A stretch of DNA of 64,000 bases. Source: Candidatus Kapaibacterium sp. (GTDB lineage Bacteria > Bacteroidota > Ignavibacteria > Kapaibacteriales > UBA2268). The stretch is taken from positions 1 through 64,000 of the forward strand of contig JAOABA010000020.1 in assembly GCA_026418625.1 (NCBI GenBank), read 5' to 3'. Under the pieces are notes generated by a model that was not told the origin of the DNA, ran no database searches, and worked only from the letters and a program-made list of their open reading frames with translations. The position numbers and the translations under genes were made by a program. Below, piece after piece: positions 23,554-63,115 of this stretch (position 1 is the first letter of the stretch; each line of letters starts with the position of its first letter).

Positions 23554-24045
23554 TTATTTCAACTGCTTCAAAATTTTTGCAGGAACTCCCCCAACAAGAG
23601 TGTAAGGTGGAACATCTTTCGAAACAACAGCCCCTGCTGCAACTACAGCCCCTTCTCCAATTTCAACTCCGGGTAAAATTATAGCACCAGCACCGACGTA
23701 GGAACCTTTTCTGAGGGTTACCGCTGAAACAGTGCAGTCATCTTTGCTTCCACTTGTCCCGGATAGTCCCTTTGCATCGTCGTGGCAGATAATCATTACA
23801 CGGAATGAGATTACAACGTCGTCCTCGAATGTTATGAGTTCAGGGAATGATGAATCAAGCATACAATCAAGCCCAATGAAACATCCCTCGCCGATTTTAA
23901 CACCCATTAACCTGTATAATTTCAGTCGCAATCCGCTCGGGATAGTAAATCTGGTTATTATATCAAGTAACTTAATAAAAAAGCGGGATATTATGTTCCT
24001 GCTTCTTTTTTTGATATATTCAGACTTAGAATATCTTTCGTGCAT
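23554..24045 (-). CDS. Hexapeptide-repeat acyltransferase (WbbJ/LacA-like)
   Basis: The protein has 163 aa. After a basic, partly hydrophobic N-terminus (1-~40) it consists of left-handed beta-helix hexapeptide turns ([35 protein letters not shown] in pieces) and ends [15 protein letters not shown], the closing signature of the family. The HDDAKG segment contains a likely catalytic histidine. It probably O-acetylates a sugar of the surface glycan. It is the most downstream gene of the minus-strand locus and its start overlaps the ketoisomerase stop by one base. Confidence 0.85.
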
Positions 24046-24465: not shown

Positions 24466-24693
24466 TTAGTGATTGTAATTAATTATGTAATTTTTAATTT
24501 TTTCAAAGGTGTTCATATCAGAAATTTCTGTTGGCTTAAATTTTAAACCAAAATTAGCTTCCAACTCGAGTATTAATTGAACGTGGCGAAGAGAATCCCA
24601 ATTAGTTACATCATTTCTCGACGTTGAATCCGTAATTTTTTCTAATGGGTATAAAAACACCTCCGACATTATTTTTTTTATTTGTTCTTCCAT
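24466..24693 (-). CDS. Acyl carrier protein
   Basis: The protein has 75 aa from the ATG at 24693; a TTG two codons upstream is possible. It is an acidic four-helix ACP with the phosphopantetheine site WDSLRHVQL (Ser 34 in this numbering). It is unlike housekeeping AcpP in sequence and has no fatty-acid synthesis neighbours. It sits between a NeuD-type acyltransferase and a sugar ketoisomerase and shares the locus with an acyl ligase and a second ACP. It therefore probably carries an acyl group destined for a sugar. Confidence 0.85.
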   Translation of the reverse strand: MEEQIKKIMSEVFLYPLEKITDSTSRNDVTNWDSLRHVQLILELEANFGLKFKPTEISDMNTFEKIKNYIINYNH

Positions 24694-24709
24694 AATCAAT
24701 CAAAAAAAT

Positions 24710-25351
24710 CTAAAGTATTTTTTGAGCAGGAACTCCCAAATAAGTTCCCGGTTGTTTAATATTAGTTAAAATTAAAGAACTTGCACCAATTACACAGTCA
24801 CTACAAATATTAAGAAATTGATAAACTTGAGAGCCGATACCAAAATATATCCTATCTTGAATTTTATTACCACCGGCAATATTGACTGACGGATTAATAA
24901 TGTTAAAATTACCAATTTCACACTCATGCCCAATAGTGCAAGATAAATTGAAAATGTTGAAATTTCCTAACTTAATGTCAGTCGTAAATTTACATCCAGA
25001 GGAAATTATATTTCCTATGCCGATATCTATCCTTTCCCAATCTCCAACAACATCTGGATGAATTAGATTTGGATAGCTAATATTATTATTTTCTTTTAAT
25101 TTTTTAATAATTCTTTCATTAATCTTTATATTTCCGATACCTAAAGCTACTGCAACAGGTTGCTCGATATTCATAAGCTCATCATCGGTAATAACAATTT
25201 GATATTTGCCATTAAAAGATCCAATTTTATTATTGTCATTAGTAGAAAATCCAACAAGATTCCATTTATTAATTTTATTATTTATTTGCTCAATTAAAAA
25301 TGCTATTTCTCGAGCAAAGCCTGAATCTCCAAGTATATAAATATCTTGCAT
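24710..25351 (-). CDS. NeuD/PglD-family sugar acyltransferase
   Basis: The protein has 213 aa from the ATG at 25351, which overlaps the ligase stop by one base (TGATG). An N-terminal Rossmann-like domain (IYILGDSGFAREIAF) is followed by hexapeptide beta-helix turns. The catalytic-type histidine lies in CTIGHECEIG, and the protein ends GTYLGVPAQKIL. Family members transfer acetyl or other acyl groups to amino or hydroxyl groups of nucleotide sugars. Between an ACP and an acyl ligase, it is the best candidate for the step that moves the activated acyl group onto the sugar. Confidence 0.82.
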   Translation of the reverse strand: MQDIYILGDSGFAREIAFLIEQINNKINKWNLVGFSTNDNNKIGSFNGKYQIVITDDELMNIEQPVAVALGIGNIKINERIIKKLKENNNISYPNLIHPDVVGDWERIDIGIGNIISSGCKFTTDIKLGNFNIFNLSCTIGHECEIGNFNIINPSVNIAGGNKIQDRIYFGIGSQVYQFLNICSDCVIGASSLILTNIKQPGTYLGVPAQKIL

Positions 25352-26967
25352 CACTTATCTTTTAAAATATTTTCTATATAATATTTTTTAACCTCTTTAC
25401 GTAGAATTTTATTTGTTGGTCCTTTTGGTATATGTTTCAAACCTTCCAATTCATAAGTTATATAAATTTTTGATGGTATTTTATATTTCGCAATATGTTC
25501 TGAGCAGAAATCAATTAAGGATTGCTTATCAATTGGTTTGTTATCAACTGTTTCAACAAATAATATTAGTTCCTCGCCCATAATTTTATGAGGACCACCG
25601 ATAACTACACAATCTTTGACATTTGGATACATATATACAACATTTTCAATTTCACGTGGATAAATATTTTCACCTCCTCTGATTATCAAATCATCTTTAC
25701 GACCACGAAAATAGAAAAAACCATCACTATCTTTATAACCAAAGTCACCTGAATGAAACCAATCATTTCTGAACGCTTGATTAGTATTTTCAGGTAAATT
25801 GTTATATTCGCTGAAGACATTATAACCTTTAATACAAATTTCACCAACTTCACCGACAGGTAATTCATTGAAATTTTCATCAAAAATACCTACCATATTT
25901 ACAGGTAAAGTCTTTCCTATTGAACCTATTTTTCTTTCTTCAATTTTTAAGGGATTAAATGTAGCAAAAGATGTTGTCTCTGTTAGACCATAACCTTCAT
26001 AAATAGGAATTCCAAACCTTGATTCAAATTCTTCTTGAACAGTTCTCGGTAATAATGCTCCACCACAAATAATTCCCTTCATTGTATTATCCTTTCTTTC
26101 ATATTGCAAACTTAACAATACAGAAAGTATAGTGGGAATAACGCTTGTCCAGGTAGCAGAATATTCATTTACTAAATCCCAGAAAGAAAAGAAACTAATT
26201 TCATCCCTGCTAAATATAGTAGAACCACCAGCCCATAAAGGAGCTAAAAATGTTGGTATCTGTCCATTATTATGAAACAAAGGCAACAAACACAAAGTTC
26301 TAGTATCATTATTAAATTCAAACCATTCAGCAATAGCTTGACCATCTGCCAACATATTTCTGTGGGTTAAAATACAACCTTTTGGTTTTCCACTCGTTCC
26401 CGATGTATATATAATCAATGCTTCATCATCAAGATTTGAATTTATTTCAATATCATAGGTATTTAATGTATTTATGTCTTTGTAAACGTTGAAAATATTA
26501 CTATCATCGTTATTATTATAACGAGTAATAAATTTTTTTTGATGATCATTTTCTGGATTTAATTTTAATAAATCAATTTTATTTTTAAATTCTAAATCAT
26601 AGATAATTATTTTTGGATGACTGTCATTAATTATATAATTTATTTCTTCCGAACTTAAATTATAATTTATGGGAACAACTGTCAATCCTTTGCAAAAAGC
26701 TGCATACTCTAAAATTAATAAATCAGCTGAGTTTGGCATAATTAAACAAATTCTTGAGCCTTTTTTTAGTTGTAAATTGTTAAAATAATTTGCAACCACA
26801 ATAACTTTAGAAAGAAATTTACCATAAGTCAATCTCTCAGTTTCGTTTTTGTGGATGCTTATAATAAATTCTTTATCTTTATTATCCAATGCTCTTTTGA
26901 GTAATAATTCAAAAGTTGAATTATATTTAAATTCAAAATCAAAATCAGGTTTTTGATGTTTTTTCAT
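25351..26967 (-). CDS. AMP-forming acyl ligase (ANL superfamily)
   Basis: The protein has 538 aa. It is a full-length adenylate-forming enzyme with the P-loop YTSGTSGKPKG (187-197), GYGLTETT, WFHSGDFGY, the hinge segment RGRKDDLIIRGGENIYP and a conserved C-terminal lysine region (PTNKILRKE). Such enzymes activate a carboxylic acid as acyl-AMP and load it on CoA or a carrier protein. It lies directly between two ACP genes, so ACP loading is the natural hypothesis. The neighbouring 2-hydroxyacid dehydrogenase hints that the substrate may be a 2-hydroxy acid. The substrate cannot be read from the sequence by eye. Confidence 0.88.
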   Translation of the reverse strand: MKKHQKPDFDFEFKYNSTFELLLKRALDNKDKEFIISIHKNETERLTYGKFLSKVIVVANYFNNLQLKKGSRICLIMPNSADLLILEYAAFCKGLTVVPINYNLSSEEINYIINDSHPKIIIYDLEFKNKIDLLKLNPENDHQKKFITRYNNNDDSNIFNVYKDINTLNTYDIEINSNLDDEALIIYTSGTSGKPKGCILTHRNMLADGQAIAEWFEFNNDTRTLCLLPLFHNNGQIPTFLAPLWAGGSTIFSRDEISFFSFWDLVNEYSATWTSVIPTILSVLLSLQYERKDNTMKGIICGGALLPRTVQEEFESRFGIPIYEGYGLTETTSFATFNPLKIEERKIGSIGKTLPVNMVGIFDENFNELPVGEVGEICIKGYNVFSEYNNLPENTNQAFRNDWFHSGDFGYKDSDGFFYFRGRKDDLIIRGGENIYPREIENVVYMYPNVKDCVVIGGPHKIMGEELILFVETVDNKPIDKQSLIDFCSEHIAKYKIPSKIYITYELEGLKHIPKGPTNKILRKEVKKYYIENILKDK

Positions 26968-26977
26968 TTTACCTCAA

Positions 26978-27217
26978 TTAATCAATCTTAAAATGATTAT
27001 CAAGAATCTCTAAAATGTTTATAATGCTTGTCATATTTGGAATTTGATTTCTTTTCAATTTGATGTTTAATTGACTTTCCAATTCAATAATTAATTCAAC
27101 GGTTTTCAAAGAGTTCCATTGGGGTAATGTTTTGAGAGAATAAGACAAATCAATATCCTTTACGTCCATTACATTTTTAAAAATCTCAAAAAATTTTTCC
27201 TTGTAGTCCAAAATCAA
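26978..27217 (-). CDS. Acyl carrier protein (second copy)
   Basis: The protein has 79 aa. The phosphopantetheine site is WNSLKTVEL (S36), with Asn in place of the usual Asp before the serine. The start is a TTG that overlaps the upstream stop in a TTGA junction and has an AAAGGA Shine-Dalgarno a few bases upstream; no in-frame ATG precedes helix 1. It is clearly diverged from the ACP at 24466-24693, so the two may carry different intermediates or meet different partners. Confidence 0.78.
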   Translation of the reverse strand: MILDYKEKFFEIFKNVMDVKDIDLSYSLKTLPQWNSLKTVELIIELESQLNIKLKRNQIPNMTSIINILEILDNHFKID

Positions 27218-28152
27218 AGTCCTTTAAAAAAGTTAATTAGATTTTGTGCTGCTAACATTGCCATTTCTTTTCGACAGTCAATCGTAGCAGTTCCAATATG
27301 TGGAGTAATTAATACATTTTTGTATTTTAATATAGAATGATCAGAAGAAATTGGTTCAGGATCAAAGACATCCAAAGCTGCACCGGAAATAAGATTCTCA
27401 TTTAAAGCTTTTATTAGATCATCAGTATTTACAATACTACCGCGTGCCATATTAATTATCAAGGGTTTTCTTTGCATTTTTTTGAAATTGTTATAATTAA
27501 TTAAACCTTTTGTATTTTGATTCAATGGAATATGAATCGAAATTACATCAGAAATGTTTAAAAGCTCATCGAATTCAAGATTTGTAGCAAAATCAAAATC
27601 AATAGTATTTATTGGATTTACATCAGTATAATATATTTTCACTCCAAAACCTTTCAACCTTTCAGCTACTGCTTTCCCAACTCTACCAAAACCAATAATC
27701 CCCCAATTTATATTTCTTAATGTTCTACCGTTGAAAATCTCTGGATCCCATTTTTTCCATTCATTTTTTTTAATAAATTCGAATGAGTCAACAATTTGTC
27801 TTAAAAAAGCAAGTCCAATTGCTAAAGTGAAATCCGCAGTGCTATCAGTTACAACATCTGGGGTATTAAAAATACTAATACCAAGTTTTTCAGCTGTTTT
27901 AATATCAATATTATCCAAACCAACCGCCATATTAGAAATTGCTTTTAATCTTGAGCTAGCTCTTTTTAATAATTCTTCGTCAAATTTTTCTGTTATTGTG
28001 CTTAAAATTCCATCATATTTAGGTGCATTTTCTGATAAATAATCATTACTCAATGGTTCATTAATATTTCGGTAATCAACTTCGAAATGTTCCCTTAGCA
28101 GTTTAACTGCAGATTCATTTATTCTTCGTGTTATTAATATTTTAGTTTCCAT
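27214..28152 (-). CDS. D-2-hydroxyacid dehydrogenase
   Basis: This 312-aa protein has the D-isomer-specific 2-hydroxyacid dehydrogenase fold. The NAD-binding G154-F-G-R-V-G159 motif and the catalytic trio R237 (MARGS), E266 (DVFDPEP) and H285 (TPHIG) are all in place. It reduces a 2-keto acid to a D-2-hydroxy acid, or the reverse; glyoxylate/hydroxypyruvate reductases are the closest familiar group. It overlaps the upstream aminotransferase by 11 bp. The pair could convert an amino acid to a keto acid and then to a hydroxy acid for the downstream ligase, which is inference. Confidence 0.87.
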   Translation of the reverse strand: METKILITRRINESAVKLLREHFEVDYRNINEPLSNDYLSENAPKYDGILSTITEKFDEELLKRASSRLKAISNMAVGLDNIDIKTAEKLGISIFNTPDVVTDSTADFTLAIGLAFLRQIVDSFEFIKKNEWKKWDPEIFNGRTLRNINWGIIGFGRVGKAVAERLKGFGVKIYYTDVNPINTIDFDFATNLEFDELLNISDVISIHIPLNQNTKGLINYNNFKKMQRKPLIINMARGSIVNTDDLIKALNENLISGAALDVFDPEPISSDHSILKYKNVLITPHIGTATIDCRKEMAMLAAQNLINFFKGL

Positions 28153-29386
28153 TCTTTAAAAAATCGCCTACTCTTTTCATTCCTTCAATAATTAATTTGT
28201 GATTATCTATTAGAGGACCGTAAGAAATTCTTACTGATTGAGTTAATGTTGAACCAAAACCCCATCCGGGTATAAATAAAACACCTGTATTTTTTAAAAC
28301 TTTTTGAACAAATTTTGCACTGTTCTCAAAAACTTTAACAACAATATAAATACCACCCATTGGTTTAATTAGTGGTAGATTAATGAACTCCTGAATGGCA
28401 TTAATAGTAACTTCGGATGTTTCCTTGTAGATTTTTTTTGTTTCTTCAATATATTTTTTTAATTCTCCATTTTTTATTGAATTGTTAACATAATCAGTAA
28501 AAGCCATTTGATGCATCCTATCTGGGCATAACATGGTTGCAGATTGAAAAGTTTCAAATGCTTTTATTATATATTCTGGTGCTTCAAGCCAACCAAGTCT
28601 TCTGCCTAAATTTCTGCCCCATTTTGAATTTGAATGAATGGTAATAAAATTTCCATCGGGTTTCTTGCTAAAGTATTTAGGAGTATCACAGAAATTTAAA
28701 CTTTTATAAGCAAAATCCATCACAACAACACCACCGTATTTGGATACTTCTTCATAAACTGAGTTAACAAATTCATCTGAAAGAACACCTCCAGTGGGGT
28801 TATCAGGTGAAACAAGCAAAACCACTTTAGGTTTTTCTTTATCAATAAATTCAACAACGTTCTTAATAGTTTCAGGTTCATTAGCTATATAATTGAAATC
28901 TGAATCTATGACGGGAAATTCAATTAATTCAGCGGGTTTGAAAATATTATTTTGAAGGGGATAATTACAATATGAAGGGTCTAACATCATAATTTTGTCA
29001 TTCTTATTTAATAGTATCTTAAACAAGAAGAAAGTCAATTGAGTTGAACTTTGCCCAATCAATATTTCTTCAGGTTGTAAATCCTTCATACCGTAGATTT
29101 CGCTTTCAAAAGCTATAATGGCTTCTTTGCAATATCTTTCACCGGGTGTTGGTGAATAACCACCAGCATAATGGAATTTTTGATCGTTGTTGATAATTTC
29201 TAAATATGCGTTTTGGTATCCTTTAGGTGCCTTGTGATTTACCCATCCTCCACCAAAAGAAATAAAATCTTTTGGTTCAACCCCAATTGCTTCTAAAGTA
29301 TTTGGGTCTGCATAATTCATTATTTCTCTGACTGGAGAAATCTGATTATGAAATTTTATCGCAATGTCTGATAATTGGACATCCAT
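28142..29386 (-). CDS. Class I/II PLP aminotransferase
   Basis: The protein has 414 aa with the fold-type I aspartate aminotransferase signature: SPDNPTGG (193-200), D224 in VMDFAY, and the PLP lysine K255 in SNSKWGRNLGRRLG with the downstream Arg pair. It lacks the DegT/DnrJ features of sugar aminotransferases, so it probably acts on an amino or keto acid. An AGGAAA Shine-Dalgarno precedes the ATG. It opens the run of acyl-module genes (29.4 to 24.5 kb) and overlaps the hydroxyacid dehydrogenase gene. Confidence 0.85.
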   Translation of the reverse strand: MDVQLSDIAIKFHNQISPVREIMNYADPNTLEAIGVEPKDFISFGGGWVNHKAPKGYQNAYLEIINNDQKFHYAGGYSPTPGERYCKEAIIAFESEIYGMKDLQPEEILIGQSSTQLTFFLFKILLNKNDKIMMLDPSYCNYPLQNNIFKPAELIEFPVIDSDFNYIANEPETIKNVVEFIDKEKPKVVLLVSPDNPTGGVLSDEFVNSVYEEVSKYGGVVVMDFAYKSLNFCDTPKYFSKKPDGNFITIHSNSKWGRNLGRRLGWLEAPEYIIKAFETFQSATMLCPDRMHQMAFTDYVNNSIKNGELKKYIEETKKIYKETSEVTINAIQEFINLPLIKPMGGIYIVVKVFENSAKFVQKVLKNTGVLFIPGWGFGSTLTQSVRISYGPLIDNHKLIIEGMKRVGDFLKNGN

Positions 29387-29394
29387 ATTATTTC

Positions 29395-29835
29395 CTATTT
29401 AATTTCCAACTTCTTTATTTTTTCTTCTAATCTTATTAATTCTTTAGCATAATCAAACATAATTAAATCGTAAGCTTTTTTAATTTCTGCAAGTAAATAA
29501 TCGTGAACGATTCTGTTTCTTAAATCTCTCATTTCAATCCATTGTTCAGCTGATGTAATTAAATCCAATTTTTCCATTCTGTTTAACAAATCCCTAATGG
29601 TGTCAGATGATTCAGCGAACTGATATTTCTCGTATATTCTAAAGAATTTTATCGAAATTTCATAAGCTCTTTCAAATCTGCTTGTTAAAGCGTCATAAGA
29701 TTCTAACTCTTTATCTGTATATTCTTTTGTAGGGTCATACGGAGCTAAATTTTCTAAAGATGATTTAACAAGCCTAACTGACTTAATCACTTTTTTGATT
29801 GCTTCATTGATTAATATTTTATATTCTTCTTTCAC
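29395..29835 (-). CDS. HEPN-domain protein (HepT-like toxin / HI0074 family)
   Basis: This 146-aa all-helical protein contains R106-x4-H111-x-Y113 (RNRIVHDY). That is the RX4HXY signature of HepT, the RNase toxin of type VII toxin-antitoxin systems; the tyrosine is the residue AMPylated by the antitoxin in the studied pair. It starts at a GTG overlapping the antitoxin stop (GTGA). Such pairs are common in bacterial genomes and often sit in variable regions. It interrupts the polysaccharide locus between the LegC-like aminotransferase and the acyl module. Confidence 0.82.
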   Translation of the reverse strand: MKEEYKILINEAIKKVIKSVRLVKSSLENLAPYDPTKEYTDKELESYDALTSRFERAYEISIKFFRIYEKYQFAESSDTIRDLLNRMEKLDLITSAEQWIEMRDLRNRIVHDYLLAEIKKAYDLIMFDYAKELIRLEEKIKKLEIK

Positions 29836-30116
29836 TTAATCCTGATTTTTTCGATTACTTTTAGAAATGCTTCCTCTTCCTGATTATGTATATTAGGGTT
29901 CATCACAATAACATCAATTTTTTCTTCGCACTCAATAAAAAACTTTGTTGAAACGTTTCGAGATATTTCAAAAGGATCACTCTCTGACAATATAAGTATA
30001 TCAATATCTCCCCCTTTTTTTGTATCATCAATTCTTGAGCCAAATAAATATACCTCTCCCTCAACGTTTTCTAAAGCTTTTTCAAGAGCTTTTCTTTGTT
30101 TGGCATTTAATCTCAT
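29832..30116 (-). CDS. MNT-domain nucleotidyltransferase (MntA-like antitoxin)
   Basis: This 94-aa minimal nucleotidyltransferase has the polymerase-beta-type active site: G26-S27 then D37-x-D39 (GS, nine residues, DxD), with a third acidic residue at D68 in KIDVIV. In type VII toxin-antitoxin systems MntA neutralises HepT by AMPylating it. It is immediately upstream of, and overlaps by 4 bp, the HEPN gene, which is the expected operon form. It begins 2 bp after the LegC-like gene stop, so the pair is probably carried on the glycan transcript. Confidence 0.85.
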   Translation of the reverse strand: MRLNAKQRKALEKALENVEGEVYLFGSRIDDTKKGGDIDILILSESDPFEISRNVSTKFFIECEEKIDVIVMNPNIHNQEEEAFLKVIEKIRIK

Positions 30117-30118
30117 TT

Positions 30119-31261
30119 TTAAATCCTGTAACTGCTTGGTAGATTAACAACCCTTTCCTCGAGCCAAAGCGAATTATCTAAATTACCTGACTGACATTGT
30201 TCGAACATAGGCAATTTGTTCATAAGTCTCCAAATTGGGCGTGTCATAACCCCATTCTCATTTGTAAATTTAAGAAATTCGTTTCTCTCGTCCAGATTTC
30301 GCAAGACGATTGTATTTAGCCAGTAGTTTGAGAAAGCTCCCTTCGGCTCAGTTAGGAATTTAATTCCATTTTCCTCACAAAATTCTTTATAAAGCATTGC
30401 AGTTTGGCGTTTGTTCTCTAAAATTCTATCTATGTATTCCATCTGAGCAACACCAACAGCAGCATTAATATTTGGCATTCTGAAATTATAACCAATTTCA
30501 TCGTGGACAAACTCATAGGGATGTGGTTTCTTAGCAGTTGTTGTGATGTGCTTAGCTCTCGCTGCAAGAGTTTCGTCGTCAGTAATAATCATTCCACCGC
30601 CACCGGTCGTGATAGTTTTGTTTCCGTTATAGCTTAGTATTCCAAGCTTGCCGAATGTGCCGGTATGTTTATCTTTATAAAAACTACCAAGTGATTCTGC
30701 TGCATCCTCAACTACAGGAATGTTATATTTATTGCATATTTCAACAATTTGATCTATCCTTGCCGGAAAACCGAAAATATGAACCGGAACACAAGCCGAA
30801 ATTCTTTTACCCGATGCTTTATTATAGCACTGACCGTCATCTTTGATTATTGCAAACTCATTCAAAAAGTCGCTAAGTTTTTCTGGCGACATTCCCAGAG
30901 TGTCAAGCTCGACATCAACAAAAACTGGGGTTCCCCCAGAATGAACAATTGCATTGCAGGTAGCCACAAAAGTTAGAGGTTGGGTAATTACTTCGTCGCC
31001 CTGTCTCACACCGGCAATTTGAAGTGCAATTTGCAGGGCTGTTGTCCCACTCGAGGTAGCAACAGCATAAGCAGAACCAGTGAAATCCCTTGTCATTTCC
31101 TCAAATTTCGTAACAAAAGCACCGACATAAGAAACAAAGGTAGTATCAATACATTCATTCAAATATTTCTTTTCGTTGCCCAGAAATTTCGGTGCATGAA
31201 GAGGGATAAATTCCTTAGAATTATATATTTTTCTGATGAATTGGGTTAAAATATTATTCAT
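30119..31261 (-). CDS. LegC-like DegT/DnrJ sugar aminotransferase
   Basis: This 380-aa fold-type I PLP sugar aminotransferase has TSSGTTALQIAL, the DAAES block from D186, and the PLP lysine K215 in SYNGNKTITTGGGG. The start (EFIPLHAPKFLGNEKKYL) and the end NLPSSYRI match the LegC-type subgroup. Those enzymes make UDP-4-amino-4,6-dideoxy-GlcNAc in legionaminic-acid and related pathways. No NeuB/LegI, LegG or LegF homologues were seen in the window, so the sugar here may be a 2,4-diamino-2,4,6-trideoxyhexose rather than a nonulosonate. Confidence 0.85.
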   Translation of the reverse strand: MNNILTQFIRKIYNSKEFIPLHAPKFLGNEKKYLNECIDTTFVSYVGAFVTKFEEMTRDFTGSAYAVATSSGTTALQIALQIAGVRQGDEVITQPLTFVATCNAIVHSGGTPVFVDVELDTLGMSPEKLSDFLNEFAIIKDDGQCYNKASGKRISACVPVHIFGFPARIDQIVEICNKYNIPVVEDAAESLGSFYKDKHTGTFGKLGILSYNGNKTITTGGGGMIITDDETLAARAKHITTTAKKPHPYEFVHDEIGYNFRMPNINAAVGVAQMEYIDRILENKRQTAMLYKEFCEENGIKFLTEPKGAFSNYWLNTIVLRNLDERNEFLKFTNENGVMTRPIWRLMNKLPMFEQCQSGNLDNSLWLEERVVNLPSSYRI

Positions 31262-33037
31262 TTATCTTTTTATATAAGGCTTTACAAGTTTCAAATTATT
31301 AACGAAAGAAAATCTTAAATCAGCTAATACATAATAATCTATGTCAAGATTATAATGCTCTTTCATATAAGTTTTATAAACATCATTTTCTAATTTATTT
31401 TTTGGAATATGTGAACTAATTAAGAATAGATCTTTCCTATTTATCAAATCAAGATACAGATCATTTATTTTTAATTTTTCAATTCTTTTTAAATTTACAG
31501 GATGTGCGGTTCCCCAACCTAAACCAATCGAATTAAAATTATCAAGTTCAGAAATGTCCATTAGCGGAGGATAGAATTGAAAAGGATAAGCACCGCCTTT
31601 CAAAACGTACATTATTGGTAACTTTAATTTTTCAGTAAAATATTTAAATTCCATTTGATTGATTTTATTGTATATGTTGCTAAAAAAAATGACAATAGAA
31701 GCAAATAATATCAAAGGAATTGTAAATATTATAATTAAATTTTTATTAATTCTTATATCGTTATTTCTGTTATCTTTATTAATGATCATAATAAAGAAGG
31801 GGATTAGAATTAAATAAGTTAGTATGGTATAGAAAACTCTCAATGGAAGTGGTTTTGTTAAAGTTGATATCAATATAATTACAAAAATTATCCAAATTAT
31901 AAAGAAAGTTAAAATTCTTGTCTGCTTAGGAATTTTAAATATATTTATTGATATTAATAAAAGTAGTATTGCGATAATTGTTACAGGATTTATAATTAGT
32001 TTATCCCAACTCTTTAAAGAAAAAATAAATTTATTAAGATAATATTCAATATGATTTGATTTTATCTTTTCATTATTAACAATTTTTTCTAATTTTTCTA
32101 AAGAATAAATATCATTAGGAAAAGAAAATACATATGGAATCATTTTATAATCATTGTTTGACCAACCTACAGAAGTTAATATTTTATTTTTTGTAATATT
32201 ATCTTGAAGTTCTAAAAGCTGTTGCCCCATCAGAATTGGTCTATAACTTTGATATTCAATAAATTTATTAAATTCTTGATTTACGATATAGAAACTATCA
32301 TTATATTTTTTTAGTATATAACTTGAACAAATAGTAATAATGAAAATAAATACAAATCGAATAATTCTTTTTCTTTCTTTAGCTTCTTTAAAAAATTTTA
32401 AGGAAATGATAATTATTATTGACATAAATAAAAAGTTAATCAAGAAAAAATTTTCAAACCTTATCAAACTACCAAATATAAATATCAACGATCCAAAAAA
32501 GTAAATTAAATATTTACTAAACTTTGTGGTTTTATTCATAAAATTTGAACTAAATAACAAACTCATTCCACTAAGCATTAAGAGACCAGCGACGATAGTA
32601 TATTGAATATTAATGTAATTAATAATTATAAAAAACAGAGAAAGTAAAATAGAAAAAAATAATGTTAGAAGATTTGGTTGAAATTTAAATAGTAAATATG
32701 TTAATACAATATTCGAAATAAAAATTCCAAATATTAAATATAGTGAATACCAAGGTATATGAATGTTAAATTTATAAAGGGATACTAATATCTTTCCTAT
32801 AATTACATTAGTAAACACCATCATTTCTGAGGGCTCTCCATATCTACCCGCTACAATACTCAACAATTCATAATCATCATTAGTATTAAAATTAGGGGTT
32901 AGTGATATAAAAAAAAATGCAAATAAAATAGTGTTTAATACTAAAGAGAATAGAAATGGCTTTTCTTGAAGAAATTTCTGCAAAAAACCTTTTAAGCTTG
33001 ATAATATTGTATCTTTATTCTTCCTCTCTTCTTTCAT
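31262..33037 (-). CDS. Polytopic membrane protein, possible GT-C glycosyltransferase
   Basis: The protein has 591 aa from the ATG at 33037, which has a GAGGAAA Shine-Dalgarno 4-5 bases upstream; the in-frame TTG at 33049 lacks one. It has about a dozen hydrophobic segments. After the first there is an extracytoplasmic loop with an acidic pair (FNTNDDYEL), the place where GT-C enzymes keep their catalytic acid. A soluble C-terminal tail (~150 aa) follows. It could transfer sugars from polyprenyl-phosphate donors or be another envelope glycan enzyme. No family was recognised by name. It is among the most AT-rich genes here and overlaps the wecE-like gene by 23 bp. Confidence 0.55.
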   Translation of the reverse strand: MKEERKNKDTILSSLKGFLQKFLQEKPFLFSLVLNTILFAFFFISLTPNFNTNDDYELLSIVAGRYGEPSEMMVFTNVIIGKILVSLYKFNIHIPWYSLYLIFGIFISNIVLTYLLFKFQPNLLTLFFSILLSLFFIIINYINIQYTIVAGLLMLSGMSLLFSSNFMNKTTKFSKYLIYFFGSLIFIFGSLIRFENFFLINFLFMSIIIIISLKFFKEAKERKRIIRFVFIFIITICSSYILKKYNDSFYIVNQEFNKFIEYQSYRPILMGQQLLELQDNITKNKILTSVGWSNNDYKMIPYVFSFPNDIYSLEKLEKIVNNEKIKSNHIEYYLNKFIFSLKSWDKLIINPVTIIAILLLLISINIFKIPKQTRILTFFIIWIIFVIILISTLTKPLPLRVFYTILTYLILIPFFIMIINKDNRNNDIRINKNLIIIFTIPLILFASIVIFFSNIYNKINQMEFKYFTEKLKLPIMYVLKGGAYPFQFYPPLMDISELDNFNSIGLGWGTAHPVNLKRIEKLKINDLYLDLINRKDLFLISSHIPKNKLENDVYKTYMKEHYNLDIDYYVLADLRFSFVNNLKLVKPYIKR

Positions 33038-34187
33038 AAATTTCCTCAATCTTCTGTCTGATTTCGTAAAAGTCTCGGATGCAAAGAATTATTTTCTCCT
33101 GCTCATCTTCCTTTAGTTCATAATAAAAGGGCAGTCGCAAAAGGCAATCTGAATACATATCAGAATTTTTAAGCTCCCTGCCATAGTGTTTATCGGCATA
33201 AAATGGAGACTTATGTAGCGAAAGATAATGAAATACAGGATTTATTCCGCTTTCCTTCATCACCCTTATCAGGTCATCACGTTCGTTCAAATCCTTGCAG
33301 ACAATATAGAACATATGAGCGTTATTTGTTGCATACTCAGGGATATGTGGCAATCGAATATGCCCACGCTCTTCAAGTGGTTTCAGCCCGTTATAGTATG
33401 TATTCCAGATTTTTCTCCTTCTTGATTGAATATCCTCAAGATTTTCAAGTTGGGCAAATAGAAAAGCCGCTATTATATCAGAGGGCAGAAAGGAAGAACC
33501 AATATCCACCCAGCCATATTTATCAACTTCCCCACGGAAGAACTCTGCACGGTTGGTTCCTTTTTCCCATATTATTTCCGATCGGCGAACAAACCGCTCA
33601 TCATTAACTATCAGCATACCGCCCTCCCCAGAAATCACATTTTTTGTTTCGTGGAAGGACATCGCAGCTAAATGACCAATAGAACCAAGCGGTTTACCTT
33701 TATAAAATGAATCTATAGCCTGAGCGGCATCCTCGACCACAAAAAGATTATACTTTTCAGCCAAGAACATAATTTTATCCATATCACAAGCCATACCGGC
33801 ATAGTGCACAGGAACAATAGCTTTGGTTTTCGGGGTAATAAGCTCTTCAATTTGATTGGCATCGAGATTCGGTGTTTCATTTTCGCTATCTGCAAAGACA
33901 ATTTTAGCTCCCCGCAAGACGAAAGCATTGGCTGTGCTGACGAAGGTGTAGGAAGGCATAATCACTTCATCTCCGGGTTTTATGTCAATCAAAATGGCCG
34001 CCATTTCGAGGGCATCGGTGCAGCTTGTTGTAAGCAAAGTCTTTCTGAACCCGTATTTTTCTTCGAAGAAACGCTGACACTTCTTGGTAAAAGCACCGTT
34101 CCCGGAAATTTTCCCAAGGAAGACCGCCTCATACATATAATGAGCTTCCTTCCCAGTAAGATATGGCTTATTAAAAGGTATATGCAT
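33015..34187 (-). CDS. wecE: WecE/RffA-like dTDP-4-amino-4,6-dideoxygalactose transaminase
   Basis: This 390-aa PLP aminotransferase of the DegT/DnrJ group begins MHIPFNKPYLTGKE and has TTSCTDALEMAA, VEDAAQAIDS (D153) and the PLP lysine K182 in SFHETKNVISGEGG, all characteristic of WecE/RffA. It aminates dTDP-4-keto-6-deoxyglucose to dTDP-Fuc4N (4-amino-4,6-dideoxygalactose). A WecD-like acetyltransferase (42479-43195) in the same locus would give Fuc4NAc, as in enterobacterial common antigen. The base composition looks less AT-rich than that of the flanking genes, which may reflect transfer. A WbqC gene follows upstream by 2 bp. Confidence 0.9.
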   Translation of the reverse strand: MHIPFNKPYLTGKEAHYMYEAVFLGKISGNGAFTKKCQRFFEEKYGFRKTLLTTSCTDALEMAAILIDIKPGDEVIMPSYTFVSTANAFVLRGAKIVFADSENETPNLDANQIEELITPKTKAIVPVHYAGMACDMDKIMFLAEKYNLFVVEDAAQAIDSFYKGKPLGSIGHLAAMSFHETKNVISGEGGMLIVNDERFVRRSEIIWEKGTNRAEFFRGEVDKYGWVDIGSSFLPSDIIAAFLFAQLENLEDIQSRRRKIWNTYYNGLKPLEERGHIRLPHIPEYATNNAHMFYIVCKDLNERDDLIRVMKESGINPVFHYLSLHKSPFYADKHYGRELKNSDMYSDCLLRLPFYYELKEDEQEKIILCIRDFYEIRQKIEEIYERREEE

Positions 34188-34189
34188 AA

Positions 34190-34885
34190 CTATTTCCCAA
34201 AACTTTTCATAAACTTTGTTGCGTTTGGTCCTTCATTAAATATTAAATCAATGATACTAACTTCATGAACAAATGGGGGGTATAATTGATTATATTCAGG
34301 ATAGCCGGAATAATCCATCCAGATTACTTGAATACCTTCTTTAGCAAACAATGCCTCATCTAAATAATCTTTAGCTGCGGGACCTGAAATATAAATATTT
34401 GCATTTGCTTGTTGACATAGAGAAATTAATTTCTCATTCTTTCCATCAATAATTTTGTAATTGTCGGAAGTGGAGATAATAGTTTTTATATCAAGAATAT
34501 CACAACATATCTTTAGTAAATGTTGATTAATTTTGCTTAAAAGGATCTCATTAGTAGATAAATAAAATCTTTCGAAATATTCCTTATAATCATTGAAAAA
34601 TTTTGCTTTAGAATAAGCAAATTTAATGGTATTCCAATGAATTTTTGCCCAATTTGGGTCAGAAATTTTTGTTTCATTTATTTTTTGAAAAAATTTCCCT
34701 TTTACCGAAACTGGTATGGTAAGCCAATGCAGCCCATTAGGTGTTTTAATAATGTTCCTGTTCCGCCAATCCCTTCTTGTGTATTGAACATCGTCATACA
34801 AAATAAATTCATCCACCATATTAATCATATCAAAATATCCCTTCCAAGGGATATAATTTGACTGAACTATCGCTACTTTTTTCAT
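34190..34885 (-). CDS. WbqC-family protein
   Basis: This 231-aa protein opens with IVQSNYIPWKGYFDMI and continues DDVQYTRRDWRNRNIIKT and LTIPVSVKG, which mark the WbqC-like family found in O-antigen clusters. The biochemical activity is not known to me; the family is often next to sugar aminotransferases and is suspected of acylating or aminoacylating amino sugars. Here it directly follows wecE in the operon order. A second, diverged WbqC lies at 50171-50893. Confidence 0.85.
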   Translation of the reverse strand: MKKVAIVQSNYIPWKGYFDMINMVDEFILYDDVQYTRRDWRNRNIIKTPNGLHWLTIPVSVKGKFFQKINETKISDPNWAKIHWNTIKFAYSKAKFFNDYKEYFERFYLSTNEILLSKINQHLLKICCDILDIKTIISTSDNYKIIDGKNEKLISLCQQANANIYISGPAAKDYLDEALFAKEGIQVIWMDYSGYPEYNQLYPPFVHEVSIIDLIFNEGPNATKFMKSFGK

Positions 34886-34887
34886 TT

Positions 34888-35547
34888 TTATTCTGCTTTT
34901 CTTAAAAATTTCGCTGGGTTTCCTACCCAGATTTCTCCTTCTCCGACATTTTTTGTTAATACAGAACCCATTCCAATAGTTGAATTCTTTCCAATTGTCA
35001 GAAATTCTCTTAACGTTGCATTTAATCCAATATGAACCCCATCACCTATTTTTAAAAGAGAACTGACGCAGCATTGCGCTGCAAAATGACAATGGTTCCC
35101 GATTATAGTATTATGCCCAATAATAGCATTTATCATTACAAGGTTGCATTTACCGAATTCAACGCCCGGTGAAATTGATACATTTGGCATTATGACAGTC
35201 CCCGGGCCAAGTTTGACATTAGGTGCAACATAAGCCGTTGGATGAACAAATATAGCTAATCTATCATCAGGAATATTTAAACTCTCGAATAGTTTCACTC
35301 TATCTTCCTGTCCGTCAATCCTGTATATAACATTGATGAAAAAATAGCCTTCATCTAAAAATTTTGGAACATCTTTTAACGATCCTAAAATTGGATAACC
35401 CTCAAGCATTTCACCTTTTTCCATTTTATCGTTAAGATATCCGCTGAAAACCCATTCATCAAAACCTCTGCGATTTGCATCTTCCATCGCTGCAGCTATT
35501 ACTGTCCCATTGCCTAATCCACCCAATATTATTACTTTTTTACTCAT
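34888..35547 (-). CDS. NeuD/PglD-like hexapeptide acyltransferase
   Basis: The protein has 219 aa from the ATG at 35547, two bases after the glycosyltransferase stop, with a purine-rich AAGGA site upstream; longer readings run back into that gene. A Rossmann-like N-terminus (KVIILGGLGNGTVIAAA) precedes hexapeptide turns with the catalytic-type histidine in INAIIGHNTIIG, and it ends EIWVGNPAKFLRKAE. It probably acetylates or acylates a nucleotide amino sugar. Next to wecE and WbqC, the 4-amino group of Fuc4N is a reasonable target, although the WecD-like protein competes for that role. Confidence 0.85.
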   Translation of the reverse strand: MSKKVIILGGLGNGTVIAAAMEDANRRGFDEWVFSGYLNDKMEKGEMLEGYPILGSLKDVPKFLDEGYFFINVIYRIDGQEDRVKLFESLNIPDDRLAIFVHPTAYVAPNVKLGPGTVIMPNVSISPGVEFGKCNLVMINAIIGHNTIIGNHCHFAAQCCVSSLLKIGDGVHIGLNATLREFLTIGKNSTIGMGSVLTKNVGEGEIWVGNPAKFLRKAE

Positions 35548-35548
35548 T

Positions 35549-36490
35549 TCAATCCTTATTTTTTGATATATAATTTTCAATAATATATTTTGGTCTTCCC
35601 TTTGCTTCAAGATATATTCTGCCAAGATATTCTCCGATGACACCCATCAAAATAAATTGAATACCTGATAAAAACAACACAAGAACTATAATTGAAGTCC
35701 AACCGGGAGAAAATTTTGTTCCAGTCAATCTCTCAATCAAAAGGTATGCACCATAGAAAAATCCAATAATACTTAGAGAAAGCCCAATAAAATTTGCCAC
35801 CCTTATTGGAAATAGTGAATATGAAAAAATTCTATCGAAAGCCAGTTTGAACATTTTCTTTATATTATATCCACTCTTCCCGGCAAATCTTGCATCACGC
35901 TCAACATCAACAGTTACATATTTAAAACCAGCCCAGTAAATCAGGCTGATTGTTGTTCCAGTCTTTTCGTTAATTTTCTTTATCTCATCAATAACATTTT
36001 TGCCAATTACCCTAAAACCACCAACATTCGGTGGGTGCTGAATACTTGTAATCTTTTTGGATACATTATAGAATAATTTAGAAACCAAAACCTTGAAGAA
36101 ACTGTCATCTCTTGTTTTCCATTTAGCTATTGCCATTGATACATTATTTTCCTTCATTGCATTGATTAATTTTGGTATATCCTCAGGACGATCCTGCAAA
36201 TCAGAATCCATAAGGACTACCAAATCCCCTTTTGAATGTTCAAGACCTGCTGCTATAGAATTTTGCTGCCCGAAATTTTTGGAAAATTTTATAATCCTAA
36301 TATTATCATCCTTTTGATAAAGATCTATTAATTTATCAAAAGATTTATCCTTGCTACCGTCATCAACAAATATTATCTCATATTTTTCTGTTATACTATC
36401 AATAACAGGTTTCAACCTCCTATAAAGCTCTTCAAGGACTTCCTCATCATTATAAACAGGGATAACAACTGACAGAAATAAATTATTCAT
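35549..36490 (-). CDS. GtrB-like family 2 glycosyltransferase
   Basis: The protein has 313 aa. A GT2 domain has FVDDGS (41-46) and the metal-binding DSDLQD (95-100), then FGQQNSIAAG-type acceptor loops. Two C-terminal transmembrane helices lie at about 230-255 and 265-295, and it ends GRPKYIIE. This is the GtrB/ArnC/DPM1 architecture: transfer of a sugar to polyprenyl phosphate at the cytoplasmic face for use by GT-C enzymes outside. It lies next to the YbhN-like membrane protein and near a GT-C-like protein, which could complete a Gtr-like set. Confidence 0.88.
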   Translation of the reverse strand: MNNLFLSVVIPVYNDEEVLEELYRRLKPVIDSITEKYEIIFVDDGSKDKSFDKLIDLYQKDDNIRIIKFSKNFGQQNSIAAGLEHSKGDLVVLMDSDLQDRPEDIPKLINAMKENNVSMAIAKWKTRDDSFFKVLVSKLFYNVSKKITSIQHPPNVGGFRVIGKNVIDEIKKINEKTGTTISLIYWAGFKYVTVDVERDARFAGKSGYNIKKMFKLAFDRIFSYSLFPIRVANFIGLSLSIIGFFYGAYLLIERLTGTKFSPGWTSIIVLVLFLSGIQFILMGVIGEYLGRIYLEAKGRPKYIIENYISKNKD

Positions 36491-38567: not shown

Positions 38568-39821
38568 TTAAATTTCTTTTTTAACTAATTTTCTTTTCCC
38601 TGAAGGTTCAAGAGGAATAAAATCTAAAACCTCGAATGAATAATTTACTTGTTCTTTAAACACCAAATTTTCTAAAATATATTTTTCAATTTTTCCTTTT
38701 AATGATTTATCAAATGGAACATATTTTATTATTATATCTCCATTCTTTTTCTGATAAAATTGTATCATTCTGACATTAGTTAAATTCATAACTAAGGGGT
38801 AAAAATTTTGAAAAGTTAATTTCTTTCCATTGTTCAATATTATAACATCGCTATGTTTTCCAATAATATGTTCAAATTGAGTGAATTGATATTTACATTT
38901 TGCAACATTTTCTAATGTTTTAATATAATCACCAAGATTATACCTTATTAATGGAGTAACGAACCTGTCTAAAGTTGTAATTACTATTTTTCCATTTTCA
39001 CCTTTACTAACAGGATTATCATTTTCATCAAGTAATTCAATTATTAAATTATCATCCTCAAAGTGTCTATAACCACATTTTGGACATGTCCAGCCAATTG
39101 CACCAATTTCATTTGCACCATAATAGTCAATGGGATAAACATTAAAAACTTTTTTAATATTATTAGATAATTCAATATTTAATGATTCACCCATTGAAAC
39201 AACGATTTTTACTGTATTAATTGCAATATCATTCTGAATCATAAAATTAGTTAATATTTCTAAAGTAGGTTTAAGAGCGTAAATCAACTTTGGTTTACTT
39301 CTTTTGATTATTTCAACTTGTTGCTCAACCGGGAGATTGATCGAAATAATTTTTCTCTTTTTACTAACTAACTTACCAAATAAACCCTTAGGATTAGATA
39401 TATTATCTCTCCAAATCAATGCCACATTCCACCATGGTCTCCAACCGTTTAAAAACAATATCTTTAAAAAGGTAATTTGCCATTTAAGTGCATCTTCATT
39501 ACTTTGATAAAAGATCAGAGGAGAAGCTGATGACCCACTTGTACCATTTTTTTCTAAAAATTCTCTGTTATAAACTTCTGAAGTATAATAATTTATATCA
39601 TAGTTTCTTAGCTGATTTGAGTCAATAATTGGCAAATTTTTTAAATCATCGATTTTATTAATTTTTAAATCAATATTTTTATATAGATCTCTATATAAAG
39701 GAACATTATTATATGCATAATTTACAATATGATTTAATTTTTTAATTTTTTCTTTTTCAAGTTTTTCTGGATTTTTAAATAAATTCAAATATGATTTCAG
39801 TGCATATTTAATTAAATTCAT
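38568..39821 (-). CDS. CapK/PaaK-like adenylate-forming enzyme 1
   Basis: This 417-aa protein resembles the phenylacetate-CoA ligase/CapK (coenzyme F390 synthetase) group: an N-terminal YNNVPLYRDLY segment, the P-loop-like NGTSGSSASPLIF, GANEIG, a Cys pair (CPKCGYRH) and RYNLGDY. These enzymes form acyl- or other adenylates; CapK-type proteins are typical of capsule loci, but their substrates are rarely known. It is one of three such genes in this locus, in tandem with a second copy (6 bp apart) that is only distantly similar. It could activate an acid used to decorate the glycan. Confidence 0.82.
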   Translation of the reverse strand: MNLIKYALKSYLNLFKNPEKLEKEKIKKLNHIVNYAYNNVPLYRDLYKNIDLKINKIDDLKNLPIIDSNQLRNYDINYYTSEVYNREFLEKNGTSGSSASPLIFYQSNEDALKWQITFLKILFLNGWRPWWNVALIWRDNISNPKGLFGKLVSKKRKIISINLPVEQQVEIIKRSKPKLIYALKPTLEILTNFMIQNDIAINTVKIVVSMGESLNIELSNNIKKVFNVYPIDYYGANEIGAIGWTCPKCGYRHFEDDNLIIELLDENDNPVSKGENGKIVITTLDRFVTPLIRYNLGDYIKTLENVAKCKYQFTQFEHIIGKHSDVIILNNGKKLTFQNFYPLVMNLTNVRMIQFYQKKNGDIIIKYVPFDKSLKGKIEKYILENLVFKEQVNYSFEVLDFIPLEPSGKRKLVKKEI

Positions 39822-39827
39822 AACGCC

Positions 39828-41120: not shown

Positions 41121-41122
41121 AC

Positions 41123-42019
41123 CTAGAATCTAACTTTATTCATAATCATATTATGTTTTCTCAGAACTTTTTTAGCTGCTAAAACCATAGGGGGTCCAAT
41201 AAATTTACCATTTTTTACTGCAACACCTTTCCCTTCTTTTTTTGATTCCTCGAAGAGTTTGAGCATTTCTTCAGCATCAGCCACTTCCTCAGGTGTTGGT
41301 GAAAAATATTTATGAGCAAGCTCCAATTCCTTTGGATTTAGTATTAGCATCCCTTCGAACCCAAGGTTTTTTGCTACTTTTAAATTCACTTCCAAATCTT
41401 CGAGGTCGTGAACATTTATATGAACAGTATCAATTGGAATAACATTGTTAGCTCTTGCTGCCATAGCAATCATTGCTCTTGCAGTAAATAAGCTTGTATG
41501 TTCCTTATCGTGAATACCTTCAAGATCGGTAATGAAATCTTCACAACCAAAAGCGATTCCAATTACTCTATCTGAGGCTTGACAAATTTCTTGAGCATTG
41601 AGAACAGCTGCAGCCGTTTCAATCAAAGGAATTAACTTGAATTTACCAACGGGTAATCCTTTTTCGTATTCAATAGTGTCCAAAAGCTTAGAAATGAAAT
41701 AAACATCCTGCCCAGTTTGAGATTTTGGATACATAAAACCGTCAATACCGTCAATAGTAAGTTCTGTTACATCTCTAAGCAAATATCCACTTTCCCTATC
41801 GTTTATCCTTGGAAATACTTTATGGTTTTTGAATCTGTTGTTTTTTACGTACTCCTTTATTTTTTCTCTTGCCACTTGCTTATTCTCAGCTGGTTGCACT
41901 GAGTCCTCCAGATCAAGAAGCAGAACATCAGCATCGGATCTAATAGCACTTTCAAGCAGTCTATCGTTATGTCCGGGGACAAACATAAGGCTTCTCATCA
42001 AATAATGCTCATCTATCAT
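41123..42019 (-). CDS. CitE/HpcH-like acyl-CoA lyase
   Basis: This 298-aa TIM-barrel protein of the HpcH/HpaI aldolase-citrate lyase beta family has LMFVPGHNDRLL, DLEDSVQP, FPRIND (substrate Arg), LIPLIETAAAV (metal Glu) and AFGCEDFITDL (metal Asp), all conserved. Family members cleave or form beta-hydroxyacyl-CoA compounds such as malyl-CoA, citramalyl-CoA or methylmalyl-CoA. It overlaps by 11 bp with a MaoC-like hydratase gene, a pairing known from methylmalyl-CoA/mesaconyl-CoA chemistry. Its presence in a glycan locus is unusual. Confidence 0.88.
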   Translation of the reverse strand: MIDEHYLMRSLMFVPGHNDRLLESAIRSDADVLLLDLEDSVQPAENKQVAREKIKEYVKNNRFKNHKVFPRINDRESGYLLRDVTELTIDGIDGFMYPKSQTGQDVYFISKLLDTIEYEKGLPVGKFKLIPLIETAAAVLNAQEICQASDRVIGIAFGCEDFITDLEGIHDKEHTSLFTARAMIAMAARANNVIPIDTVHINVHDLEDLEVNLKVAKNLGFEGMLILNPKELELAHKYFSPTPEEVADAEEMLKLFEESKKEGKGVAVKNGKFIGPPMVLAAKKVLRKHNMIMNKVRF

Positions 42020-61865: not shown

Positions 61866-61867
61866 AA

Positions 61868-63112: not shown

Positions 63113-63115
63113 AAT

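What the first reader, a model, noticed from the sequence alone, without database searches (positions are those of the whole stretch)
24466..29386. Self-contained acyl-activation module inside a sugar locus
Six contiguous genes encode a class I aminotransferase, a D-2-hydroxyacid dehydrogenase, an ACP, an AMP-forming ligase, a NeuD-type acyltransferase and a second ACP, with overlaps at most junctions. Their order suggests a pathway: amino acid to 2-keto acid, to D-2-hydroxy acid, to acyl-AMP, to acyl-ACP, to acylated amino sugar. Known relatives of the idea are the V. cholerae O1 perosamine tetronate genes (ACP, ligase, reductase, transferase); this combination with an aminotransferase and two different ACPs is not one I know as a described system.
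Basis: partly seen in the sequence, partly recalled or inferred. Interest (0 to 1): 0.7.

Follow-up and report, generated by a model that had tools for sequence, protein, structure and literature searches.

The report
Hydroxy-acid loading cassette for surface sugars
The bacterium carries a compact gene set that probably turns an amino acid into a hydroxy acid, loads it on a small carrier protein and attaches it to a surface sugar; the same core genes travel together in a few very distantly related microbes, which suggests a real but rare and previously undescribed way of decorating cell-surface sugars.

Summary
Six minus-strand genes at 24466-29386 encode a class I aminotransferase (AT), a D-2-hydroxyacid dehydrogenase (DH), ACP1, an AMP-forming ligase, a PglD/NeuD-like acyltransferase and ACP2. 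The exact six-gene order was found nowhere else. Its core AT-DH-ACP-ligase recurs in order in Peregrinibacteria, Kaiser/Nomurabacteria and Magasanikbacteria MAGs, and with fusions (DH-ACP; DH-ACP-ligase) in two further loci; two more have AT, ligase and ACP without DH. The proteins are 44-50% identical to the window's and co-diverge (Mantel r 0.90-0.97). It is rare: only the query genomes matched in samples of about 400 per phylum. The DH profile matches glyoxylate/hydroxypyruvate reductases best. The ligase clade includes an ACP-ligase fusion that, by gene order, is BurJ, which with BurH is published to load an alpha-hydroxy acid. A D-2-hydroxyacyl-ACP pathway ending on an amino sugar is therefore the best-supported reading; the acyl identity (D-glyceroyl favoured) and the acceptor sugar are inferred. 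ACP plus PglD-like acylation of amino sugars was already proposed for Flavobacterium, and ACP/ligase/LuxC/LuxE modules are known, so this is a new variant of a known kind.

The parts
28142..29386 (-). class I (fold type I) PLP aminotransferase, 414 aa; catalytic Lys255, Asn196, Tyr227 and carboxylate-binding Arg386 conserved; proposed to make the 2-oxo acid from an amino acid
   Evidence: Pfam PF00155; orthologues 44-50% identical, all beside the same ligase clade; AlphaFold pLDDT 85, TM about 0.8 to class I aminotransferases
27214..28152 (-). D-2-hydroxyacid dehydrogenase, 312 aa, of the glyoxylate/hydroxypyruvate reductase type; Arg237, Glu266, His285 present
   Evidence: Pfam PF02826/PF00389; profile of four orthologues hits glyoxylate reductases at E 1e-100 and human glyoxylate/hydroxypyruvate reductase at 1e-75
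26978..27217 (-). acyl carrier protein 1 (TTG start), attachment Ser36 in WNSL
   Evidence: no Pfam hit, but aligns with 12 cassette ACPs, Trp34/Ser36 invariant and with the fused ACP domain of L053
25351..26967 (-). AMP-forming acyl ligase, 538 aa, of a clade with the signature FHNNGQ ... GLTETTSF; proposed to adenylate the hydroxy acid and load it on ACP
   Evidence: PF00501; 15 clade members in named genomes; alignment A4; ACP-ligase fusion in L053
24710..25354 (-). PglD/NeuD-like left-handed beta-helix acyltransferase, 214 aa; His143 aligns with the catalytic His of the family
   Evidence: PF17836 above cut-off, TIGR03570 145.7 bits against cut-off 160.8; alignment to perosamine N-acetyltransferase and PglD; His143 invariant
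24466..24699 (-). acyl carrier protein 2 (likely ATG start at 24693), attachment Ser in WDSL
   Evidence: PF00550 above cut-off; ACP in the same position after the ligase in L055, L057, L080
24045..24464 (-). FdtA/WxcM-like dTDP-4-keto-6-deoxyglucose ketoisomerase, next gene in the same run
   Evidence: PF05523 E 3e-52
23554..24045 (-). hexapeptide acyltransferase (WbbJ/FdtC-like), last gene of the run
   Evidence: PF00132, best NCBIfam hits below cut-offs
30119..31261 (-). DegT sugar aminotransferase of the LegC family (makes a 4-amino-4,6-dideoxy sugar nucleotide): likely source of the acceptor for the neighbouring acyltransferase
   Evidence: TIGR04181 542.6 bits, cut-off 420
33015..34187 (-). 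WecE-type dTDP-4-amino-4,6-dideoxygalactose transaminase: alternative source of the acceptor
   Evidence: NF008687 591 bits, cut-off 375; 50% identical to the DegT in L067
34190..34885 (-). WbqC family protein (function unknown), a family fused to the ligase in L067
   Evidence: PF08889 E 8e-79; fusion
34888..35643 (-). second NeuD/PglD-type acyltransferase
   Evidence: TIGR03570 163.1 bits, cut-off 160.8
29395..30116 (-). HepT-like and MntA-like pair lying inside the run; not part of the pathway
   Evidence: PF08780/PF01934 and PF01909 above cut-offs

Best explanation
The block is a self-contained D-2-hydroxyacyl-ACP supply cassette feeding an amino-sugar N-acyltransferase. (1) The aminotransferase converts an alpha-amino acid to a 2-oxo acid. 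(2) The dehydrogenase, of the glyoxylate/hydroxypyruvate reductase type, reduces it to a D-2-hydroxy acid. (3) The ligase adenylates that acid and loads it on the phosphopantetheine arm of ACP1 and/or ACP2, made holo by the chromosomal AcpS. (4) A PglD/NeuD-type acyltransferase (the neighbour at 24710-25354, or the one at 34888-35643) transfers it to the amino group of a nucleotide-activated 4-amino-4,6-dideoxy sugar made by the DegT aminotransferases of the locus. Shown: gene content, order, co-conservation, fusions, co-divergence, conserved catalytic residues. Inferred: all reactions; D-glyceroyl (from serine via hydroxypyruvate) is the favoured acyl group because of the DH family and because a dedicated aminotransferase would not be needed for pyruvate, oxaloacetate or 2-oxoglutarate; the acceptor sugar; the division of labour between the ACPs.
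For: Core order AT-DH-ACP-ligase in L057, L059/L058 and L060; DH-ACP fusion in L079; DH-ACP-ligase fusion in L056; AT-ligase-ACP in L055 and L080. Distances co-vary: AT-ligase r 0.90 (5 of 5040 permutations as high), DH-AT 0.97 (2 of 120), DH-ligase 0.94 (3 of 120). Every orthologous AT found with its 3' side in view sits beside a ligase of this clade. A dedicated AcpS lies near the ligase in L055, L056, L057, L059, L060 and L061; the window's genome has its own AcpS. DH profile: best solved relatives are glyoxylate and hydroxypyruvate reductases. Ligase clade: the L053 ACP-ligase stands in the order KARI, FkbH, decarboxylase, ACP-ligase, small hydrophobic protein, matching BurG, H, I, J, K; BurJ with BurH loads an alpha-hydroxy acid with ATP (PMC12304814). 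The clade's pocket segment FHNNGQ differs from FHVHGL/FHISGL of solved relatives, and the Asp that binds amino groups in NRPS A domains is not seen at the corresponding place (sequence reading). Loci pair the core with sugar-nucleotide genes: RmlB, DegT and PglD_N acyltransferases in L055, L057, L080. Amide-linked 2-hydroxy acids (malic, 2-hydroxyglutaric) are known O-antigen parts, including in Flavobacterium relatives (PMC3210612, PMC4052302).
Against: L055 and L080 lack the DH and carry a FabG-like reductase instead, so the DH step is not universal. The acyltransferase is not orthologous between loci, so the last step is not tied to the core by conservation. Both a LegC-type and a WecE-type aminotransferase and two PglD-type acyltransferases are in the window, so the acceptor is ambiguous. 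The acyltransferase beside the ligase scores below the NeuD subfamily cut-off. BurJ identity of the L053 ligase rests on gene order and the published letters, not on a sequence comparison with BurJ, and similarity to the window ligase is only 38%. L055-L062 and L067 are MAG contigs; the fusions could in part be assembly artefacts. The AT fold gives no substrate.
Confidence: 0.62

Rival explanations
1. The cassette loads an acid that is not a free 2-hydroxy acid: the 2-oxo acid itself is loaded and reduced on the ACP, or an acyl-ACP is further processed by FabG-like and VOC-like partners, giving another acyl group (3-hydroxyacyl, branched or epimerised).
For: FabG-like reductases sit beside the core in L055, L056, L057, L060, L080 and L067, and VOC/methylmalonyl-epimerase-like proteins in L055, L056, L059, L060, L061; L055, L080 and L067 have no DH.
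Against: The window has neither an SDR nor a VOC protein beside the ligase; DH and ACP, and DH, ACP and ligase, are fused in L079 and L056, which ties the DH to the loading step.
Confidence: 0.2
2. The AT and DH run in the other direction or serve another pathway (for example making serine from glycerate or phosphoglycerate), and the ligase/ACP pair loads an unrelated housekeeping or fatty acid.
For: The DH family includes phosphoglycerate dehydrogenases (TIGR01327 232 bits, below its cut-off); aminotransferases are reversible; generic FadD-type ligases are the ligase's best named families.
Against: DH-ACP and DH-ACP-ligase fusions and tight co-divergence of AT, DH and ligase; DH profile is closer to glyoxylate/hydroxypyruvate reductases than to SerA.
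Confidence: 0.12
3. A chance gathering of unrelated genes in a horizontally shuffled sugar island; no joint function.
For: Sugar islands recombine freely, and the exact six-gene order was found nowhere else.
Against: Same core in phylogenetically remote genomes, with fusions, and correlated divergence.
Confidence: 0.04

Closest known systems
Vibrio cholerae O1 tetronate genes (from memory) and the related ACP / FabG / AMP-synthetase / LuxE / LuxC sets of Aeromonas and enterobacterial flagellin glycosylation islands (PMC7874193, PMC4875605)
   Same: dedicated ACP and AMP-forming ligase inside a glycan locus, proposed to supply an acyl group for a sugar
   Different: those use LuxE/LuxC-type enzymes; here an aminotransferase and a D-2-hydroxyacid dehydrogenase precede the ACP-ligase pair. 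A set of the LuxC/LuxE type is also present in this same locus at about 61868-66600 of the contig
Flavobacterium psychrophilum O-polysaccharide genes wfpC-wfpG (PMC6519341)
   Same: locus-specific ACP and a PglD homologue predicted to move the acyl group from ACP to a 4-amino sugar nucleotide
   Different: acyl chain made by ketoacyl synthases and a ketoreductase (3,5-dihydroxyhexanoyl), not from an amino acid through ligase loading
BurJ/BurH loading of an alpha-hydroxy acid in malleicyprol biosynthesis (PMC12304814, PMC12790350)
   Same: ATP-dependent loading of an alpha-hydroxy acid on a carrier domain; the cluster relative in Eleftheria is an ACP fused to a ligase of this clade (38% identity)
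   Different: assembly-line polyketide/peptide product, an FkbH-like partner and a KARI-type enzyme; no AT-DH pair and no sugar
PglD / PerB / VioB sugar N-acetyltransferases
   Same: fold family, PglD_N domain, catalytic His position
   Different: those characterised use acetyl-CoA; here acyl-ACP use is proposed

Membership tests
D-2-hydroxyacid dehydrogenase, glyoxylate/hydroxypyruvate reductase type (27214-28152) | two-domain 2-Hacid_dh fold match with catalytic Arg, Glu, His | tested here: met
   PF00389 and PF02826 above cut-offs; Arg237, Glu266, His285 invariant; profile match E 1e-100
D-2-hydroxyacid dehydrogenase, glyoxylate/hydroxypyruvate reductase type (27214-28152) | score over the curated glyoxylate reductase equivalog cut-off | tested here: not met
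   NF009714 306 bits, cut-off 455; so the subfamily function is not claimed as membership
Class I aminotransferase (28142-29386) | Pfam match, PLP Lys and carboxylate-binding Arg | tested here: met
   PF00155 95.5 bits over 19.7; Lys255, Arg386 invariant; fold
Acyl carrier protein (ACP1, ACP2) | attachment Ser in a PP-binding domain | tested here: met
   Ser36 and Trp34 invariant in 13 sequences; PF00550 over cut-off for ACP2 only
NeuD/PglD sugar acyltransferase (24710-25354) | TIGR03570 score over cut-off | tested here: not met
   145.7 bits against 160.8; PglD_N domain over cut-off and His conserved, so it may work like one but is filed only as PglD-like
Tetronate / LuxC-LuxE type ACP-ligase module | LuxC or LuxE-type acyl reductase/synthetase with the ACP and ligase | tested here: not met
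   none among the six genes; a separate set with LuxC and LuxE lies further along the contig
BurJ-type alpha-hydroxy-acid ligase | same ligase clade | tested here: inconclusive
   clade motif shared with the L053 bur-like ACP-ligase; BurJ itself was not compared
BurJ-type alpha-hydroxy-acid ligase | adenylates and loads a 2-hydroxy acid | not testable with these tools
   needs enzyme assays
Flavobacterium wfp-type ACP/PglD N-acylation | ketoacyl synthases beside the ACP | tested here: not met
   no ketoacyl synthase among the six genes or the flanking genes scanned

The most novel reading that the evidence does not exclude
A portable amino-acid-to-D-2-hydroxyacyl-ACP cassette, carried with its own phosphopantetheinyl transferase even by ultra-small Patescibacteria, supplies hydroxyacyl groups for surface amino sugars, with interchangeable acyltransferases (PglD-like, AAC(3)-like) as the last step and the uncharacterised WbqC family as a probable partner.
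Probability: 0.45. Interest if true: 0.7.

Novelty: new variant of a known kind. Interest (0 to 1): 0.57.

Why it matters
Many bacterial glycans carry amide-linked hydroxy acids whose biosynthesis is unknown; this cassette gives a concrete, testable gene set and a recognisable signature (ligase motif FHNNGQ beside an AT of this family). It would explain why tiny Patescibacteria genomes hold ACPs and AcpS in glycan loci, add a third way of feeding ACP-bound acyl groups to sugars beside fatty-acid-like synthesis and the LuxC/LuxE route, and points to a function for the WbqC family.

Tried and rejected
AT alone as a single-sequence query: nothing in plasmids or genome contigs; only generic aminotransferases in the order. 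Whole-ligase searches returned generic FadD-type ligases; the useful query was the ligase core aligned with the Eleftheria fusion. DH alignment found nothing in viral contigs. Sampling for AT orthologues in the window's phylum (395 genomes), the Peregrinibacteria genome's phylum (380) and class (162) and the Magasanikbacteria order (86) gave only the query genomes. AT structure: fold confirmed, no substrate hint. WbqC structure: no clear PDB match by Foldseek; VIA-align best Z 8.7 to phosphopantetheine adenylyltransferases and about 8 to class I tRNA synthetases, near the level of chance arrangements, so no function is claimed. LegB dehydratase: no match over cut-off in the genome, so the LegC-type sugar route is incomplete as far as seen. 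Paper searches for an AT/DH/ACP/ligase sugar module found none; the library is open-access only. The paper that characterised BurJ/BurH is not held.
Full report
Check of the observation. The six minus-strand ORFs are at the stated places: AT 28142-29386, DH 27214-28152, ACP1 26978-27217, ligase 25351-26967, PglD/NeuD-like acyltransferase 24710-25354, ACP2 24466-24699. ACP1 has no Pfam match, but its Trp34 and Ser36 are invariant among 13 cassette ACPs. The run goes on beyond 24466 with a FdtA-like ketoisomerase and a hexapeptide acyltransferase, and upstream are a HepT/MntA-like pair, a LegC-family aminotransferase and a WecE-type aminotransferase.

Is it conserved? The AT has no close relative in samples of the window's phylum or order, and none in plasmids. 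The ligase's best plasmid hit, in Eleftheria terrae, is an ACP-ligase fusion. Aligning the two ligase cores and scanning 84,980 species genomes gave 15 clade members at 48-63% core identity, plus one distant hit. Annotation of those loci shows AT-DH-ACP-ligase in order in L057 (Peregrinibacteria), L059 (Kaiserbacteria; L058, Nomurabacteria, is 98.4% the same DNA and is counted once) and L060 (Magasanikbacteria). L079 (an IMG/VR contig) has AT, a DH-ACP fusion and the ligase. L056 (a MAG labelled Nanoarchaeota) has AT and a single 916-residue DH-ACP-ligase protein. L055 and L080 have AT, ligase and ACP with a FabG-like reductase and no DH. L057 and L061 are cut by contig ends; the genomes of both hold AT pieces at other contig ends. 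Clade ligases without the AT lie in L053 and L062-L069. The six-gene order with the acyltransferase between ligase and ACP2 was seen only in the window.

Do the genes belong together? Pairwise identities of AT, DH and ligase co-vary across loci: AT-ligase r 0.90 (5 of 5040 permutations reach it), DH-AT r 0.97 (2 of 120), DH-ligase r 0.94 (3 of 120). With the fusions this is strong evidence for one functional unit inherited and transferred as a block. Scattered presence in remote lineages and absence from nearly all sampled genomes point to horizontal transfer.

What the parts do. The AT keeps Lys255, Asn196, Tyr227 and Arg386 in seven sequences and is a standard fold type I enzyme. The DH keeps the Arg-Glu-His set, and a profile of four orthologues matches glyoxylate reductases (E 1e-100), glycerate dehydrogenase/glyoxylate reductase (E 3e-81) and human glyoxylate/hydroxypyruvate reductase (E 1e-75) ahead of phosphoglycerate dehydrogenases. 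The ligase clade shares FHNNG(Q) and EG(Y/F)GLTETTSF in most members, where solved relatives have FHVHGL or FHISGL. In Eleftheria the clade member follows a KARI-like, an FkbH-like and a decarboxylase gene and precedes a small hydrophobic protein; this is the order of BurG, H, I, J, K of the malleicyprol cluster, and BurJ with BurH is reported to load an alpha-hydroxy acid on a T domain (PMC12304814; PMC12790350). That the Eleftheria protein is a BurJ relative is inference from gene order. AcpS genes lie near the ligase in L055, L056, L057, L059, L060 and L061; the window's own genome has one AcpS elsewhere.

The acceptor. In L055, L057 and L080 the core is followed by a PglD_N acyltransferase, RmlB and a DegT aminotransferase, i.e. 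the makings of a dTDP-4-amino sugar and its N-acylation. In L079 the next gene, and in L059 two nearby genes, are AAC(3)-like N-acyltransferases. In the window the neighbour is a PglD-like protein and a LegC-family aminotransferase; a second PglD-type protein sits with a WecE-type aminotransferase. So a 4-amino-4,6-dideoxy sugar nucleotide is the likely acceptor, but which one is open.

The acyl group. Amide-linked malic and 2-hydroxyglutaric acids are known in marine and Flavobacterium-type O-antigens (PMC3210612, PMC4052302). Because oxaloacetate, pyruvate and 2-oxoglutarate are available without a special aminotransferase, and because of the DH family, serine to hydroxypyruvate to D-glycerate is my favoured route; this is inference and may be wrong.

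Comparison and novelty. ACP-ligase-LuxC/LuxE sets in glycan loci are known (PMC7874193, PMC4875605), and one lies in this same contig (ACP, FabG-like, AMP ligase, LuxE, LuxC). An ACP plus PglD homologue for N-acylation was proposed in F. psychrophilum (PMC6519341). No held paper found describes the AT-DH-ACP-ligase combination, but subscription literature was not searched. I rate it a new variant of a known kind.

Limits. No activity was tested; most comparison loci are MAG contigs; BurJ itself was not aligned; metagenome-wide counting was not available.

Noticed in passing
window 60975-64000, continuing to about 66600 of the contig (L002): A second, different acyl module of the known type in the same locus: AAC(3)-like acyltransferase, LuxC, LuxE, AMP ligase, FabG-like reductase, ACP.
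   Followed up: partly
L067:8639-11014: WbqC (function unknown, PF08889) is fused to a ligase of this clade in a Kuenenia MAG; WbqC also lies near AT/ligase in L055, L057, L080 and at window 34190-34885, suggesting a role in acyl transfer to amino sugars.
   Followed up: partly
window 34190-34885: AlphaFold model of WbqC (pLDDT 87) has only weak PDB matches, best Z 8.7 to phosphopantetheine adenylyltransferases and about 8 to class I tRNA synthetases.
   Followed up: partly
window 29395-30116: HepT-like and MntA-like pair inserted in the middle of the sugar operon, with overlapping reading frames.
   Followed up: no
window 38568-42485: Two PaaK-type AMP ligases, an HpcH/citrate-lyase-like protein and a MaoC-like hydratase in a row: perhaps a third acyl-handling set in the locus.
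   Followed up: no
L056, L059, L060, L061, L055: A VOC (methylmalonyl-epimerase-like) protein sits beside the core; possible epimerase for the 2-hydroxyacyl group.
   Followed up: no
L055, L057, L080, L067: A recurring protein of about 307 residues (no Pfam match, weak similarity to beta-1,2-mannobiose phosphorylase) and a methyltransferase accompany WbqC, the PglD-like acyltransferase and DegT.
   Followed up: no
L079, L080: Two IMG/VR contigs (46 and 88 kb) carry the cassette inside sugar-gene runs; whether they are really viral was not settled (a few PHROG matches to auxiliary metabolic genes).
   Followed up: partly
L059:12821-14128 and L079:15527-16795: A DUF4910/DUF2172 protein and AAC(3)-like acyltransferases accompany the core in both loci.
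   Followed up: no
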